The notes under the pieces are model-generated. The model had not been told where the DNA came from. It worked only from the letters and a program-made list of their open reading frames with translations, and did no database searches. This document shows, piece after piece, positions 6,734-14,574 of a stretch of DNA of 64,000 bases; positions within the stretch are counted from its first letter, which is position 1, and every line of letters starts with the position of its first letter. Location of the stretch: positions 2,769,466 to 2,833,465 of the forward strand of contig NZ_JH651379.1 of NCBI RefSeq assembly GCF_000260115.1. The letters are read 5' to 3'. The stretch is from Galbibacter orientalis DSM 19592 (lineage in GTDB: Bacteria > Bacteroidota > Bacteroidia > Flavobacteriales > Flavobacteriaceae). The position numbers and the translations under genes were made by a program.

Positions 6734-6918
6734 ATGCACAACAAAGACGTATATAACTCATAGCTAGTGTTTTGCTTAATCGAAGTTAAAGCATATTTGG
6801 AAAGGCGCCAAATTTTTAAATTTGACGATTTCCAATAAAAAGATAAATAGTAAAATTTAAAAATCTGGCTTGTGCCTAACCGAAAAATAATCGCTAATTT
6901 ACACGCTACGAGCCATAT
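6734..6918 (+). other. attC-like site, 5' part (split by group II intron)
   Basis: R'' ATGCACAAC is followed by arm GACGTATATAACTCATAGC. The opposite arm GCTACGAGCCATAT (6905-6918) stops exactly where the intron begins. Joining it to ACACGACCGTTG (10133 on) restores pairing with the 5' arm, largely through G-T wobbles and A/G transitions. The interior holds further stems, e.g. TTGGAAA/TTTCCAA. Confidence 0.65.
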
Positions 6919-7469
6919 GTGTGCCGAGAGTAACGAACGGCTGAAATTCGTTACGTAACTGTTTATAAGATGGTGGAACCGCCTGTGCTGAGCGCAGTCG
7001 AAGTGACCCACCGGTGCTGTTCTACAGGGGAGAGCATCAAACCCCCATAAGGTGCTTTGGTAAAGAGTCAAGGTATTGAGCGTTATGGAAACGACTGTGC
7101 CATGAGCGTGGTCAGGTATGAATAAAGGAGATGAATGCAAATGAACCTCTGATGAAGTGTCGAAAAAGTGCAACCTTCTGTCAAAAGTGTTTGAAGTATG
7201 ACAAACATGATAAGTTTAGCGGTTACCTGTTTACTGGCTAAGCGGCAGGCGTCATTTAGGAGGCATGACCTTTATTCGGGCTTATAAGCGGAACTCGGGA
7301 ATCTGCTCCAAGATGCAAAGTGAAAAGTACAATAGCGCAAACTAGAGGCTAAATAGCGATGCTTGGTTCAGGGACGGACCAGTCTGTAGTAGTGATGAAA
7401 GTTTTGTAATGAAACTGGAGCAAAGGGACTGGCTTATACAGTTTATCAATTTTTACAACTCGTAAGAGG

Positions 7470-8720
7470 ATGATTCAATTTGAGAAGACAAAATCAGTGC
7501 CTATTACCAAAGAAATGGTATGGGAAGCCTACTTACAGGTAAAGCGAAAAGGAAAAAGCGCAGGGATAGATAATCTAAGTATGTCAGATTATGACAAGCA
7601 AAGACATCGACACTTGTACAAGGTATGGAACCGCTTAGCCTCTGGTAGTTATTACCCACCACCAGTTCTACAAGTTGAAATTCCAAAGAAAAACGGATCC
7701 ATTCGCCAATTAGGGATTCCAACCATTAGCGATAGAGTAGCCCAAACGGTGATAAGAAATCAAATAGAAGAAAGACTGGAAATGATCTTTCATCCAGAAT
7801 CCTATGGTTATCGACCTAAACGCAGTGCTCATCAAGCACTTGAACAGGTACGCAAAAACTGCTGGAAATATGATTGGGTGATTGATTTAGACATCAAGAA
7901 TTTCTTTGATGATATCGACCATGACAAGTTGCTTAAAGCGTTAAAGAAACATGTTGAGGAAAAGTGGGTGCTTAAATACATCGAAAGATGGCTCAAAGCT
8001 CCACTTCAAACCCAAAAAGGTGAAATCGTAGCAAGAACAAAAGGCACACCACAAGGTGGGGTGATAAGTCCACTATTAGCCAATCTGTTTCTGCATTACA
8101 CCTTAGATGTTTGGTATGGAAGAATGAAGCCTGCAATTGAATTTGTACGCTATGCAGATGATATTATAATTCATTGTCAGACACAAAAAGAAGCAGAGCA
8201 AATTTTGCAAAGCATAAAAGTAAGACTGGAATCTTGTGGATTAACATTGCATCCTGATAAAACAAAAATTGTGTATTGTAAGGATTTTAGAAGGCAAGAA
8301 AAGTATGAAAAAGTAAAATTTGACTTTTTAGGATATACATTTCAGCCACGCAGCTCAAAATCGAAGAAATCAGGGAAGCTGTTTCTAGGGTTTGACTGTG
8401 CAATCAGCATCCAATCACGCTCACGAATATTTGAAGTGATTAGGAAGATGAAAATTCCAAGAAAGCAATGTGATAGTATTGTAGGTATAGCACATTATTT
8501 AAATCCTAAACTTAGAGGGTGGATACGTTACTTTGGTAAATACCGAGGTTATAGTTTGTCCAAGGTGTTTTATGTACTTCGTATAAAACTAGTAAGATGG
8601 GCAAGATATCGCTATAAACGGTATAGAAATAATCTAACAAATGCTTATAGATGGTTGGACAGGGTTAGAAAACAATTTCCTAGTCTGTTTTATCACTGGT
8701 ATGTTGGATATTCGAATTAA
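7470..8720 (+). CDS. ltrA: Group II intron-encoded reverse transcriptase/maturase
   Basis: The protein (416 aa) has the RT fingers/palm with SYGYRPKRSAHQAL (about 111-124), TPQGGVISPLLANLFLH (about 193-209) and the catalytic YADD (about 228-231). It ends with a maturase/thumb domain (GIIM-like: YLNPKLRGWIRYFG, about 345-360). No HNH endonuclease follows, so retrohoming would rely on single-stranded or hairpin DNA targets, as in class C introns. It lies in intron domain IV between the 5' ribozyme part and domain V and appears intact. The domain V/VI break by the IS110 insertion may leave the protein without a competent RNA partner. Confidence 0.93.
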   Translation: MIQFEKTKSVPITKEMVWEAYLQVKRKGKSAGIDNLSMSDYDKQRHRHLYKVWNRLASGSYYPPPVLQVEIPKKNGSIRQLGIPTISDRVAQTVIRNQIEERLEMIFHPESYGYRPKRSAHQALEQVRKNCWKYDWVIDLDIKNFFDDIDHDKLLKALKKHVEEKWVLKYIERWLKAPLQTQKGEIVARTKGTPQGGVISPLLANLFLHYTLDVWYGRMKPAIEFVRYADDIIIHCQTQKEAEQILQSIKVRLESCGLTLHPDKTKIVYCKDFRRQEKYEKVKFDFLGYTFQPRSSKSKKSGKLFLGFDCAISIQSRSRIFEVIRKMKIPRKQCDSIVGIAHYLNPKLRGWIRYFGKYRGYSLSKVFYVLRIKLVRWARYRYKRYRNNLTNAYRWLDRVRKQFPSLFYHWYVGYSN

Positions 8721-8741
8721 GTGTATAGATTTGTATAAGAA

Positions 8742-8775
8742 GAGCCGTATGATGGGAGACTATCACGTACGGTTC
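8742..8775 (+). ncRNA. Group II intron domain V (catalytic core)
   Basis: The 34-nt hairpin starts GAGCCGTATGATGG and ends CACGTACGGTTC, pairing over the expected stem with the GAGA-like loop. It has the form of a standard domain V. Its 3' strand GTACGGTTC is the sequence matched by the IS110 target guide. Confidence 0.93.
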
Positions 8776-8824
8776 CCTTTAGATTTGAAATAAGAAACAA
8801 TCCATAATTATATTATTGATATTG

Positions 8825-9030
8825 TTGAAAAGAGGGGGTCTGGGGGAGACTAATAACTTATTAAAATTGTTCATATTTTTATCAGGAAGAGTGGGGTGAA
8901 CTTTGTACGGTTCTAGAGCTTAAATCTCTAATCACAGTATTAGTCCCCGCTTTTTTATTCACGGTTACAAAGGACCAGATAGAATACTAATTAGTAATAA
9001 TTACTAAAGGTTTTAGTCAAAGTAACCATT
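8825..9030 (+). ncRNA. Predicted IS110 bridge RNA (target and donor loops)
   Basis: A 5' hairpin GTCT-GGGGG-AGAC (8839-8851) is followed by two stem-bounded loops. Target loop: stem GTGGGG (8891-8896) with CCCCGC (8945-8950). It holds left guide GTACGGTTC (8905-8913), identical to the left target flank 8767-8775, and right guide TCTCTAA (8925-8931), reverse complement of right flank TTAGAGA (10093-10099). Donor loop: stem GGTTAC (8963-8968) with GTAACC (9022-9027). It holds left guide ATAGAATAC (8979-8987), identical to the element's right end 10082-10090, and right guide CTAAAGG (9004-9010), reverse complement of left end CCTTTAG (8776-8782). Guide sense and order agree with the published IS621 bridge RNA model. 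Confidence 0.85.
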
Positions 9031-9048
9031 AATTTAAAAATTTGAAAT

Positions 9049-10044
9049 ATGGAAATTTTAGAAACCCTTGGTGTTGATATCAGCAAAAAAGTAATCGATA
9101 CCCATCTTCACAAAGAAAACCTATTTCAGCAATTTGAAAACAATAAAAAAGGTTTTAAGCAAATGGTTAAGTGGTTAGAAAAGAGTAGTAAAGTCCCTAC
9201 GGAAAACCTTCTGTTCGCTATGGAACATACTGGGATATACTGTCACAGTATATCTCTCTTTCTGTTTGAAGAAAACTTTAATTATGTGATATTGCCTGGC
9301 TTGGAAATTAAACAATCCATGGGAATGACCAGAGGGAAAAATGACAAAGCAGATGCTAAAAGAATAGCTCTTTATTCCTATGAAAAACGGGATCGGCTAA
9401 AATCTAATATTCCAAGTTCTGAGAGCATTGTTAAATTAAAACGCTTGTTCTCGCTACGTGAACGCATGGTAAAACAAAGAGCTGGCTACAAAATGAGTTT
9501 AAAGGAGCAATCGGAAATACTGTCAAAAAGTAAAAATAAACTACTTCTAAAAATTCAGAAAAGACTTATTAAATGTCTCACTAAAGAAATAGATATTCTT
9601 GAAACAGAAATAGAAACTATTATTTCGGAAGACGACAATCTTAAATTCCAGTATGATTTAATAATCACCATTAAAGGTGTAGGTAAACAAACTGCACTTT
9701 ATATGATAGTATTTACAGAGGGTTTTAGAAAGTTTGACAGTTGGAGGAAATTTGCTTCTTATTGCGGTATAGCTCCTTTTCCTAATACCTCTGGTTCAAG
9801 TATAAGAGGAAGAACCAAAGTAAGCCATTTAGCAAATAAAAAATTGAAGAGCTTGTTGGATTTATGTGCTAAATCTTCTATCCAATACAACGAAGAGATG
9901 AAATTATATTACCAGAAAAGAATCGCCTTGGGAAAAAACAAGATGTCTACAATAAATATTATCAGGAATAAAATACTGGCTAGAATCTTTGCTGTTATTA
10001 ACAGAAAATCCCCTTATGTAGATTTAATGAAATATGCAGCATAA
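9049..10044 (+). CDS. IS110-family DEDD recombinase (transposase)
   Basis: The N-terminal RuvC-like DEDD domain shows Asp at about 10 (LGVDISKKVID), Glu at about 59 (FAMEHTGIY) and two Asp at about 99 and 102 (RGKNDKADAKR). The C-terminal Transposase_20 domain contains the helix-hairpin motif TIKGVGKQTA (about 207-216) and the catalytic serine region NTSGSSIRGRTKVSH (about 246-260). The length (331 aa) is normal. It should act with the bridge RNA encoded just upstream to recombine the element's circular junction with its target. All motifs look intact, so the copy may still be active. Confidence 0.93.
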   Translation: MEILETLGVDISKKVIDTHLHKENLFQQFENNKKGFKQMVKWLEKSSKVPTENLLFAMEHTGIYCHSISLFLFEENFNYVILPGLEIKQSMGMTRGKNDKADAKRIALYSYEKRDRLKSNIPSSESIVKLKRLFSLRERMVKQRAGYKMSLKEQSEILSKSKNKLLLKIQKRLIKCLTKEIDILETEIETIISEDDNLKFQYDLIITIKGVGKQTALYMIVFTEGFRKFDSWRKFASYCGIAPFPNTSGSSIRGRTKVSHLANKKLKSLLDLCAKSSIQYNEEMKLYYQKRIALGKNKMSTINIIRNKILARIFAVINRKSPYVDLMKYAA

Positions 10045-10092
10045 ACTAATTAAAAAATATGAAATATAATTTGTTTTAGTCATAGAATACCT

Positions 10093-10132
10093 TTAGAGAG
10101 GCTCGGGGTGAAACTCCCCTTGTCTACTCGAC
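10093..10132 (+). ncRNA. Group II intron domain VI and 3' end
   Basis: GAGAGGCTCGGGGTGAAACT continues into CCCCTTGTCTACTCGAC, the typical domain VI hairpin (CGGGG/CCCCTTG) and an AC 3' terminus. It is displaced 1.3 kb from domain V by the IS110 element. Confidence 0.8.
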
Positions 10133-10149
10133 ACACGACCGTTGGCAAC
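10133..10149 (+). other. attC-like site, 3' part with next cassette junction
   Basis: ACACGACC followed by G^TTGGCAAC completes the attC begun at 6734. The next cassette starts at 10142; no complementary R'' box (GTTGCCAA) is seen downstream, so this may be the eroded end of the array. Confidence 0.5.
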
Positions 10150-10188
10150 AAGCTTGACCCGTCCTGAAATATGTATACACTAAAACAA

Positions 10189-12282: not shown

Positions 12283-13827
12283 ATGGCCAACAAACAAATA
12301 GATATGCGAAAAATAAAACAGATTTTCAAACTCTTCAGTGAAGGAATCAGTAAGCGCCAAATAAGCCTAATCACAGGGCTGTCGCGTAATACCATCACTA
12401 AGTACATTGACTTTTTTAAGCGCTATCGGCTTACCGATTACGAAGTGTCCGCCATGACGCTCGAGGAGCTGAACAGACTTTTTAAAACCAACCAAAAAGG
12501 TAAGAGCCAGCAACTATTGACCCTAGAGACGTATTTTCCCTATTTTGACAAAGAACTGCGCAAAACAGGGGTAACCAAAGAGTTGCTTTGGCAAGAGTAC
12601 CTTTCCAAACATCCAGATGGCTACAAACTTTCCCAGTTTAGGTATTGGTATCGTGAGTGGGTTAAAGAAGTGTCTCCAGTGATGCATTTTACACACAAAG
12701 CGGGCGATAAACTTTTCATTGATTTTACGGGCAAGAAGCTTTCCATAGTAGATCGTTACACAGGTGAAATACAAGATCTAGAGGTCTTTGTCTGTGTATT
12801 GGGCAGTAGCCAATATACTTATGTTGAGGCCTGTGAGAGTCAAAAGAAAGAAGATTTTATAGCTTGTATAGAAAACGCACTTTGGTTTTATGGCGGTGTA
12901 CCACAGGCTTTAGTGCCCGATAACTTGAGGGCAGCAGTCACTAAAAGCAGTCGTTACGAACCAAAAGTAAATGAAACTTTTATTGATTTTTCTGAGTATT
13001 ATGAAACCTCGGTACTTCCAACCAGGGCCTACAGGCCTAGGGACAAGGCCATCGTCGAAAATGCCGTGCGTATTATATATACACGGGTCTTTGCGCCACT
13101 GCGCAACCAAACTTTTCATACTAAAGCTGCACTGAATAAGGCTATATTAGAACTTCTTAAAACCCATAACAACACATCTTTTAGGGGGCGTGAATATTCT
13201 CGCTATTCGTTATTTGAAGAGATTGAAAAACATCAGCTTAAACCATTGCCAGCAAAACGCTATGAGATTAAACGTTACGCTAATGCAACGGTTCATAAAA
13301 ACAGCCACATTTATTTTAGCAAAGACAAACACTATTATAGTTTGCCCTATCAGCATATAGGCAAACGTATTAAAGTGGTTTACTCAGATAGCACCATAGA
13401 GATGTTCTACCAACAGGAACTACTTACAGTCCATCCAAGAAACAAACAAAAATATGGGTATAGCACGATAAAGGAACACATGCCTTCCCGTCACCGCTTT
13501 ATCAGCGAGTGGAGCAGTGAAAAATTCATTGCCTGGGCAGAGCAGGTTGGTAAACATTGCAAGGTGCTAATCATTAACATATTAGAAAAGAAACAACACC
13601 CAGAGCAATCCTATAAATCATGTCTGGGCATATTGCACCTCACTAAGAAGGTAGGCAATACGAGGTTGGACAATGCCTGCAAGCGTGCCTTGGACTATGG
13701 TGCTCATAACTATAATATCATAGAACGTATCCTTAAAAACGGCTGGGACACTTTAGATGAAAATATCGAAGACCAACCAGATATCCCAAACCATAGCAAT
13801 ATTAGGGGAAGTCATTATTACAAATAA
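12283..13827 (+). CDS. istA: IS21 transposase IstA
   Basis: The protein (514 aa) has an N-terminal helix-turn-helix (ISKRQISLITGLSRNTITKY, about 19-38) and an RNase H-like integrase core. The acidic residues are visible in KLFIDFTGKKL, ALVPDNLRAAV and DKAIVENAVRI, followed by a C-terminal beta domain. It performs DNA cleavage and strand transfer with the IstB ATPase. Appears intact. Its 3' end overlaps the untranslated lead of istB. Confidence 0.95.
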   Translation: MANKQIDMRKIKQIFKLFSEGISKRQISLITGLSRNTITKYIDFFKRYRLTDYEVSAMTLEELNRLFKTNQKGKSQQLLTLETYFPYFDKELRKTGVTKELLWQEYLSKHPDGYKLSQFRYWYREWVKEVSPVMHFTHKAGDKLFIDFTGKKLSIVDRYTGEIQDLEVFVCVLGSSQYTYVEACESQKKEDFIACIENALWFYGGVPQALVPDNLRAAVTKSSRYEPKVNETFIDFSEYYETSVLPTRAYRPRDKAIVENAVRIIYTRVFAPLRNQTFHTKAALNKAILELLKTHNNTSFRGREYSRYSLFEEIEKHQLKPLPAKRYEIKRYANATVHKNSHIYFSKDKHYYSLPYQHIGKRIKVVYSDSTIEMFYQQELLTVHPRNKQKYGYSTIKEHMPSRHRFISEWSSEKFIAWAEQVGKHCKVLIINILEKKQHPEQSYKSCLGILHLTKKVGNTRLDNACKRALDYGAHNYNIIERILKNGWDTLDENIEDQPDIPNHSNIRGSHYYK

Positions 13828-13843
13828 ATTTAAGCCAAAAACA

Positions 13844-14574
13844 ATGAATAAACAGACATTGGAACACATGAAACAACTAAGGCTATACGGTATGTACAGA
13901 GCCTTTGACAGCAGTTTATCGCCACAAAGTATAAACTACACCAATGATGAACTCATCGCATATCTGCTCCAAAGCGAATGGGATGATCGTCAAAACAGAA
14001 AAATAGAACGGTTAACAAAAGCGGCGCGTTTTAGGTACAGTGCCGTTATGGAAGCTATCGATTTTGATGCTTCAAGACATCTGGATAAAAATCAAATACA
14101 ACGCTTTGCTAGCTGTGAGTTTATAAAGCAAAAACAGAATATCCTTATCACGGGAAGTACAGGTGCTGGAAAAAGCTATATGGCATCAGCTATCGGTCAT
14201 CAGGCGTGTTCATTGGGATATAAGGTCATGTATTATAACACGAATAAACTTTTTACCATGCTTAAAACATCAAAAGCAGATGGCTCTTATCTAAAACAAA
14301 TCAATAAACTAGAAAACAAGACCTACTGATTATTGATGATTTTGGACTTAAAGCTTTAGATGCCATAAATAGGCATTCCTTTATGGAAATTATCGAAGAT
14401 AGGCACGGAGAACACAGTATTATTATCGCTTCACAATTACCAGTGGAAGCATGGCATGAAATTATAGGAGAACAAACCATCGCAGATGCCATTTTAGACC
14501 GTCTTGTACATAATGCACACAGAATAGATATTAAAGGAGAATCTATGCGTAAAAAAATGAAAAATAAAGACTAA
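13844..14574 (+). pseudogene. istB: IS21 helper ATPase IstB, frameshifted
   Basis: The start MNKQTLEHMKQLRLYGMYRAF is at 13844, 16 bp after istA. Walker A GSTGAGKS is intact. Near 14313-14316 an A run is one base short: the frame reads KLENKTY and stops, whereas adding one A gives KLEKQDLLIIDDFGL (Walker B) and continues cleanly to 14574, ending MRKKMKNKD. The AAA+ ATPase is therefore split just before Walker B. Unless frameshifting or a sequence error is involved, this IS21 copy should lack its target-selection ATPase. Confidence 0.88.

What the first reader, a model, noticed from the sequence alone, without database searches (positions are those of the whole stretch)
8779..10099. IS110 element whose bridge RNA is aimed at group II intron domain V
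All four guide-like segments in the non-coding left end fit the bridge RNA model. Target guides: GTACGGTTC (8905-8913) equals the left target flank 8767-8775, and TCTCTAA (8925-8931) is the reverse complement of the right flank 10093-10099. Donor guides: ATAGAATAC (8979-8987) equals the element's right end 10082-10090, and CTAAAGG (9004-9010) is the reverse complement of its left end 8776-8782. Each pair sits in its own stem-bounded loop (GTGGGG/CCCCGC, GGTTAC/GTAACC) in the order target then donor. The targeted GTACGGTTC is the conserved 3' strand of domain V, shared by many group II introns, so one guide could give access to a whole class of retroelements. I know of no described IS110 lineage with this target; novelty is not verified.
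Basis: partly seen in the sequence, partly recalled or inferred. Interest (0 to 1): 0.93.

Follow-up and report, generated by a model that had tools for sequence, protein, structure and literature searches.

The report
Jumping gene aimed at group-II introns
A small bacterial jumping gene of the RNA-guided IS110 family carries a guide RNA that appears to read the junction next to the catalytic heart (domain V) of group II introns, and it sits at that spot in two different bacteria; the machinery is of a known kind, the target may be new.

Summary
The window holds an intact IS110-family element (8777-10090) inside a group II intron, between domain V (DV) and domain VI. Its left end encodes a two-loop bridge RNA supported by covariation in relatives. 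The fourth is misassigned: TCTCTAA belongs to a hairpin that stays constant while targets change; the real right target guide is TCACAGT, 8932-8938. The corrected guides predict the target GTACGGTTC|TGTGA, the DV-DVI linker at 44 of 49 listed DV places in the window's bacterial family. An 85%-identical element in Arenibacter nanhaiticus sits exactly there in a different intron. Across 18 distinct guide pairs in relatives, guides match their own flanks far above permutation. It is a new target specificity of a known mechanism; DV-targeting may be ancestral to this small clade.

The parts
6919..10132 (+). group II intron (boundaries approximate) interrupted by the element
   Evidence: D1-D4 (RF01999, 6996-7117) and DV (RF00029) matches; a sister copy with 20 differences in 1776 bases at G000:C1:3893820-3895595; 5' end inferred from where identity to the sister copy starts and a GTGTG start; 3' end from the CTACTCGAC shared with other copies
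7470..8720 (+). intron reverse transcriptase/maturase, 416 aa, open frame intact
   Evidence: TIGR04416 417 bits against a cut-off of 300; PF00078 and PF08388; ORF
8742..8775 (+). domain V; its last nine bases GTACGGTTC (8767-8775) are the left half of the target
   Evidence: RF00029 49.2 bits; sequence
8777..10090 (+). IS110-family element, 1314 bp; C8776 is an extra base explained by neither donor nor target
   Evidence: left end CTTTAG and right end ATAGAATAC shared with close relatives; empty sister site
8888..8953 (+). [quoted passage not shown]
   Evidence: 7 of 9 pairs show changes on both sides, 96.3% of cells paired, 18 sequences including the window
8905..8913 (+). left target guide GTACGGTTC
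   Evidence: same offset after TGAACT as in relatives, where it matches their left flanks
   Evidence: stem TAGAG/CTCTA identical in L010, L023 and L030, whose right flanks differ from the window's
8932..8938 (+). right target guide TCACAGT (reads ACTGTGA on the target top strand)
   Evidence: directly 5' of ATTAGT as in relatives; fits the right flank ACTGTGAG of L010
8963..9027 (+). donor-binding loop (outer stem GGTTAC 8963-8968 with GTAACC 9022-9027)
   Evidence: five outer pairs form in 15 of 18 rows, with compensatory pair types; the script took the best of 12 spacings per row; the single-sequence fold shows the same stem
8979..8987 (+). left donor guide ATAGAATAC, equal to the right end 10082-10090
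   Evidence: sequence
9004..9011 (+). right donor guide CTAAAGGT, reverse complement of AC + CTTTAG (right end + left end)
   Evidence: sequence
9049..10044 (+). IS110 recombinase, 331 aa; putative catalytic D10, E59, D99, D102, S248
   Evidence: aligned to IS621 (8wt6), E 7e-19, residues counted by hand
10091..10101 (+). right flank CTTTAGAGAGG, running into domain VI; repeats the element's left end
10096..10132 (+). domain VI and intron 3' end (approximate)
   Evidence: same letters in the sister copy and in a copy of another genome (L080)

Best explanation
This is an IS110-family insertion sequence, apparently autonomous, whose bridge RNA pairs its left target guide with the 3' strand of group II intron domain V (GTACGGTTC) and its right target guide with the DV-DVI linker that follows (TGTGA). 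The recombinase joins the circular element (ATAGAATAC|CTTTAG) to that site after the shared C. The consensus target GTACGGTTC|TGTGA occurs in introns of many genera of the family, so one guide reaches many copies. Shown by sequence: anatomy, guides, two insertions at DV in different introns, agreement of guides with flanks in relatives. Inferred: that the RNA is made, that it guides the recombinase, and the strand-exchange chemistry (by analogy with IS621).
For: Intact recombinase frame with IS621's catalytic positions. Two-loop RNA with 7 of 9 compensated pairs in the target stem and a compensated donor stem in 15 of 18 rows. Guides match own flanks over 18 distinct guide pairs, 0 of 20,000 permutations as good. 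L010 (Arenibacter nanhaiticus, 85% aa) sits at GTACGGTTC|element|TGTGAGAGG, left guide 8/8 and right guide 5/6, beside a DV that Rfam recognises, in an intron whose DV and DVI differ from the window's. Window and L010 share 84% nt identity in the gene yet an identical left guide. The linker is TGT at 44 of 49 distinct DV places listed, in 17 of the 19 genomes with a match, of 397 searched.
Against: Only two DV insertions are known. The window copy carries an extra C at 8776, and its right flank matches the right guide at 2 of 6. Close kin L023, L030 and L110 lie outside introns, and G705, host of L023 and L030, has no RF00029 match. The clade is rare: none of the 17 sampled genomes with the consensus target holds a close relative. 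The fold of the window's left end alone is not better than shuffles (z -0.89). No expression or activity data.
Confidence: 0.85

Rival explanations
1. The DV location is an accident of two off-target insertions: the lineage's real target is elsewhere (something like GTTTGGTTC|TGTGA as in G705) and introns are merely hit.
For: Three close kin lie outside introns; the window copy's right flank fits its guide poorly; no third DV insertion was found.
Against: The left guide of the window and of L010 is a perfect copy of the DV strand, 9/9, and the right guide equals the linker consensus; an off-target insertion would not change a guide. In the tree L010 branches first and the window next, with G705/G1153 nested (91/85, not strongly supported), so the DV guide is more simply ancestral. 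G705's own insertions fit its guides imperfectly (L023 7/8 and 4/6; L030 left flank GTTCAGTTC against guide GTTTGGTTC).
Confidence: 0.08
2. One reading: right guide TCTCTAA recognises TTAGAGA in this intron.
For: Exact 7/7 match of 8925-8931 to 10093-10099.
Against: TCTCTA is constant in L010, L023 and L030, whose right flanks are TGTGAGAGG, TGTGGGATA and TGTGAGGCT; in relatives the segment directly 5' of ATTAGT matches the right flank instead. The flank's TTAGA repeats the element's own left end.
Confidence: 0.03
3. Compatible with the best explanation, about this copy only: the odd junctions record an earlier element at the same site. A first copy was lost by deletion between GA of its left end (CTTTA-GA-TTTG) and GA of the linker (TGT-GA-GAGG), leaving CTTTAGAGAGG, into or beside which the present copy went.
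For: The right flank CTTTAGAGAGG is exactly that join; in this genome the three copies with exact GTACGGTTC all have linkers other than TGT (window; CTT in L095/L003; CCTGT in L097/L005), while three copies with one change in GTACGGTTC keep TGT and copies of the same DVI type in other genomes (L065, L070, L080) keep TGT.
Against: Three sites, two of them sister copies; the extra C is not explained; CTT differs from TGT by just two substitutions, so point changes would also do.
Confidence: 0.35

Closest known systems
IS621 and IS110-family bridge RNA systems (PMC11208160, PMC11208158; passages read)
   Same: DEDD recombinase with a Tnp-domain serine (aligned to 8wt6); two-loop RNA with left and right target and donor guides
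   Different: IS621 targets REP sequences (PMC1525189, passages) and uses a CT core; here the shared core base is a C (in L010 target TC, donor AC), and the target is the DV-DVI junction of group II introns. Sequence kinship to IS621 is distant (E 7e-19)
IS1111-type elements aimed at other mobile elements: IS4321/IS5075 at Tn21-family terminal repeats, and attC-targeting elements (reference titles seen in PMC11187229)
   Same: Target lies in a conserved part of another mobile element
   Different: Those targets are DNA transposon ends and integron sites; here a ribozyme domain of a retroelement. 'Intron' occurs 0 times in the main texts of PMC11187229, PMC11208160 and PMC11208158
REP-targeting IS110 elements ISPa11, ISPpu9, ISPpu10 (PMC1525189; passages read)
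   Same: IS110 elements specialised on a dispersed repeat
   Different: Target is REP, not an intron

Membership tests
IS110 family | DEDD (RuvC-like) domain and Transposase_20 domain in one recombinase | tested here: met
   PF01548 70 bits, PF02371 69.9 bits; NF033542 151 bits, cut-off 140
IS110 family | catalytic D/E/D/D and serine conserved | tested here: met
   D10, E59, D99, D102, S248 align with IS621 D11, E60, D102, D105, S241 (numbering counted by hand; IS621 residues from PMC11208158 passages)
IS110 bridge RNA systems | two-loop non-coding RNA in the element's end | tested here: met
   compensated stems in the window plus 17 relatives; window's single-sequence fold alone not significant
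IS110 bridge RNA systems | target guides match own flanks | tested here: met
   met for the group: 18 distinct guide pairs of relatives, 0 of 20,000 permutations. Window alone: left 8/8 if C8776 is skipped, right 2/6
IS110 bridge RNA systems | donor guides match own ends | tested here: met
   ATAGAATAC and CTAAAGGT in the window
IS110 bridge RNA systems | same core dinucleotide in donor and target | tested here: inconclusive
   in L010 only the second base (C) is shared: target TC, donor AC
IS110 bridge RNA systems | RNA is expressed and guides recombination | not testable with these tools
   needs small-RNA data and a recombination assay
group II intron (host of the element) | DV, D1-D4 and an intron reverse transcriptase | tested here: met

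The most novel reading that the evidence does not exclude
A lineage of IS110 elements has specialised on the catalytic junction of group II introns and has lived on them long enough that the left guide is held fixed while the gene diverged by 16% (window against Arenibacter). In this genome it has cycled in and out of intron copies and left scars, so the linker variation of the three best-matching copies is a record of past attacks or of escape. In the G705 branch the left half of the guide has been retargeted while the right half still reads the intron linker.
Probability: 0.35. Interest if true: 0.72.

Novelty: new member of a known kind. Interest (0 to 1): 0.58.

Why it matters
It is a natural case of one RNA-guided mobile element apparently programmed against the most conserved part of another class of mobile element, and two insertions in different introns make the target testable. 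It raises direct questions: does an intron with 1.3 kb between DV and DVI still splice, does the element ride with the intron, or does it kill it? The corrected guide layout and the 18 guide-flank pairs also give a compact data set for an IS110 branch far from IS621, with a core in which, in L010, only one base is shared.

Tried and rejected
Rejected: TCTCTAA as right target guide (constant hairpin strand). Rejected: that most relatives target DV (1 of 53 relative loci with RF00029 at gathering score). Tried without result: plasmids by protein, no match at 1e-40, and by DNA, one weak match covering 5%; viral contigs by protein and by the DV-left end join, both empty. The one scan of genome contigs gave L010 alone. 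More close kin: 2 of 375 relatives including the own genome, the other being G705; 1 of 18 in the genus of L010's genome, that genome itself; 2 of 6 in the genus of G705. The genome samples overlap.

Literature: no held paper has 'IS110', 'group II intron' and 'bridge RNA' together; five have 'IS110', 'group II intron' and 'insertion site'. Further searches. I read matching passages in PMC11208160, PMC11208158, PMC4496777, PMC1525189 and PMC11187229, PMC3706429, PMC9229058, PMC8919778; of all other papers I saw the search listing only. None of those passages describes an IS110 element targeting DV. Preprints, most subscription papers, supplements and ISfinder were not searchable, so novelty of the target is not proven.

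Weak points of the counts: I entered the left ends by hand, chosen by eye from the CTTTA/CTTTG candidates, mostly at the conserved CTTTAG or CTTTAC; this could favour matches. One search used 32 of the 52 loci L010-L061, plus the window; the other 20 gave no target loop or no left end with the pattern (L015, L025 and L049 did show a loop but were not carried into the count). One search then dropped the window, L045 and L047 (no right end found) and 12 repeats of an already counted guide pair, leaving 18. Low scorers kept: L026 left 1/8, L038 left 2/8, L046 left 3/8, L024 right 1/6, L012 right 2/6. The alignment holds the window and 17 relatives picked by me; the GC-core group (L026-L029, L031-L036) was left out. 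One search left 3 of 18 rows unresolved. In some searches the pattern demands GA with G or T within 9 bases after GTACGGTTC, so longer linkers or interruptions by other elements would be missed, and only the first places of each genome are listed.

Full report
What is there. Window 9049-10044 encodes a 331-aa IS110-family recombinase. It aligns over most of its length with IS621 (8wt6, E 7e-19) and ISCro4 (9t56, E 2e-18), and D10, E59, D99, D102 and S248 fall on the catalytic positions of IS621 (residues counted by hand, IS621 roles from passages of PMC11208158). Upstream lies a group II intron with an intact reverse transcriptase frame (7470-8720), D1-D4 and domain V. The element lies between DV (ending 8775) and DVI (from about 10096), in the orientation of the intron. 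The host family is unnamed by the tools; that it is close to Arenibacter (Flavobacteriaceae) is an inference from kin elements.

Own genome. The recombinase is single copy. A sister copy of the intron, 20 differences in 1776 bases, stands empty at G000:C1:3893820-3895595 and reads GTACGGTTC-CTT-GAGAGGCTCGGGG across the junction. So the element is an insertion. One search found eight RF00029 places in the own genome. One (L103) is a different intron type. Of the other seven, three have an exact GTACGGTTC (window, L095, L097), and all three have a linker other than TGT; three have one change in those nine bases (L091, L093, L099) and keep TGT; the copy on contig 2 (L105) has lost part of the linker.

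Bridge RNA. In relatives the target loop reads TGAACT - left guide - hairpin - right guide - ATTAGT or ATCAGT, closed by a stem. On an alignment of 18 left ends, window included, the target stem has 96.3% of cells paired and 7 of 9 pairs with changes on both sides; four of five measures are reached by 0 of 500 shuffles, the fifth (further pair types) by 11; sliding the partner by 1 to 3 columns drops pairing to 35-68%. The donor loop's outer stem pairs 5 of 5 in 15 of 18 rows with several pair types, the best of 12 spacings being taken per row. The window's left end alone does not fold better than shuffles (z -0.89); the case rests on covariation.

Guides. The offset of the left guide (third to eleventh base after TGAACT) and the place of the right guide (last bases before ATTAGT) were read from relatives and then scored. 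For 18 distinct guide pairs the left guide matches its own flank at 108 of 144 positions (permutation mean 41, sd 7) and the right guide at 80 of 108 (mean 30, sd 5); 0 of 20,000 permutations reach either. Examples: L040 8/8 and 6/6, L044 7/8 and 6/6, L037 8/8 and 5/6. Poor cases exist (L026 left 1/8, L038 left 2/8, L024 right 1/6). What was dropped before this count is told under Tried and rejected.

Correction of the right guide. By this layout the window's right guide is TCACAGT (8932-8938), which reads ACTGTGA on the target. That stem is the same in L010 and in L023/L030, whose right flanks differ from the window's.

Target. Joined, the guides predict GTACGGTTC|TGTGA. A DV pattern search of 397 genomes of the family matched in 19; among 49 distinct places listed, the bases between GTACGGTTC and GA are TGT in 44 (17 genomes), TTA in 2, TGC in 1, and in the own genome CCTTTA (occupied) and CTT (duplicates of a place merged by hand; the listing is capped per genome and the pattern would miss long linkers). 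Copies with the window's DVI type in other genomes (L065, L070, L080) have TGT. So the bridge RNA is programmed for the usual letters of this junction. But the element is rare: none of those 17 genomes had a close relative of the recombinase; G729 and G1083 hold 51% and 40% relatives, not beside DV.

Second case. Arenibacter nanhaiticus (L010; 85% aa) has the element at GTACGGTTC|CTTTAG...ATAGAATAC|TGTGAGAGG, beside a DV that Rfam recognises (46 bits). Its DV arm and DVI differ from the window's, so I take it as a separate insertion. The stretch upstream of that DV holds two ORFs that look like an IS3-type transposase (recalled, not searched); no intron reverse transcriptase was seen in the 1.4 kb available.

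Close kin elsewhere. G705 has two copies (88% aa; L023, L030) with left guide GTTTGGTTC and right guide TCACAGT; they lie at GTTTGGTAC|TGTGGG and GTTCAGTTC|TGTGAGG, with no DV nearby, and G705 has no RF00029 match. G1153 has a relative truncated on the left, with right flank TGTGAA and no DV nearby; its guides are lost. In a protein tree the four form one clade (99/100), L010 branching first, then the window, then G705/G1153 (91/85 and 84/84; the inner forks are not strongly supported). On that tree the DV guide is more simply ancestral, with the left guide changed in the G705 branch. Of 53 relative loci scanned only L010 shows DV.

The imperfect window copy. The left junction has one C more (8776) than donor plus target would give, and the right flank CTTTAGAGAGG fits the right guide at 2 of 6. 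CCTTTAGA stands at both ends. One reading is that an earlier copy was lost by a short deletion and the present copy sits at the scar; this explains the right flank but not the extra C. I hold it at about one in three. The clean example of the specificity is L010, not the window.

Known or new. The mechanism is that of IS110/IS621 bridge RNAs (PMC11208160, PMC11208158) or seekRNAs (PMC11187229), of which I read passages. IS110 and IS1111 elements aimed at repeats or at other mobile elements are known: REP (PMC1525189, passages), Tn21-family ends and attC (reference titles in PMC11187229). I found no description of DV as target in the searches; ISfinder, preprints, supplements and most subscription papers could not be searched. 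One small difference from IS621 is that in L010 donor (AC) and target (TC) share only the second core base. I therefore rate it a new member of a known kind, with an unusual target.

Noticed in passing
window 8776-8783 and 10090-10097: Exact 8-bp direct repeat CCTTTAGA at both ends of the element; looks like a target duplication, but the left one is nearly all the element's own end.
   Followed up: partly
L095 (=L003) and L097 (=L005), own genome: The two empty intron copies with exact GTACGGTTC have altered linkers (CTT, CCTGT) where other genomes mostly have TGT; possible footprints or escape variants.
   Followed up: partly
window 6850-6920 and 10130-10160: The window intron and its sister L003 share ACGCTACGAGCCATAT just upstream, and several intron copies of this genome are followed by a CCGTTG-like motif; a stretch like the upstream one, inverted, borders the unrelated element in L025. 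Perhaps a dispersed repeat that serves as intron target.
   Followed up: no
window 12283-14329: ORFs of 514 and 190 aa that look like an IS21-type IstA/IstB pair (recalled resemblance, not searched).
   Followed up: no
L030, downstream of the element: Right next to this G705 copy lies another IS110-like gene (read from the sequence, not searched).
   Followed up: no
L024, left of the recombinase: The element in G729 seems to carry two successive target-loop-like stretches (AGGTGAACTTCGGCGACGGC... and GGGGTGAACTTTTGCGACGGC...), as if the loop had been duplicated (seen).
   Followed up: no
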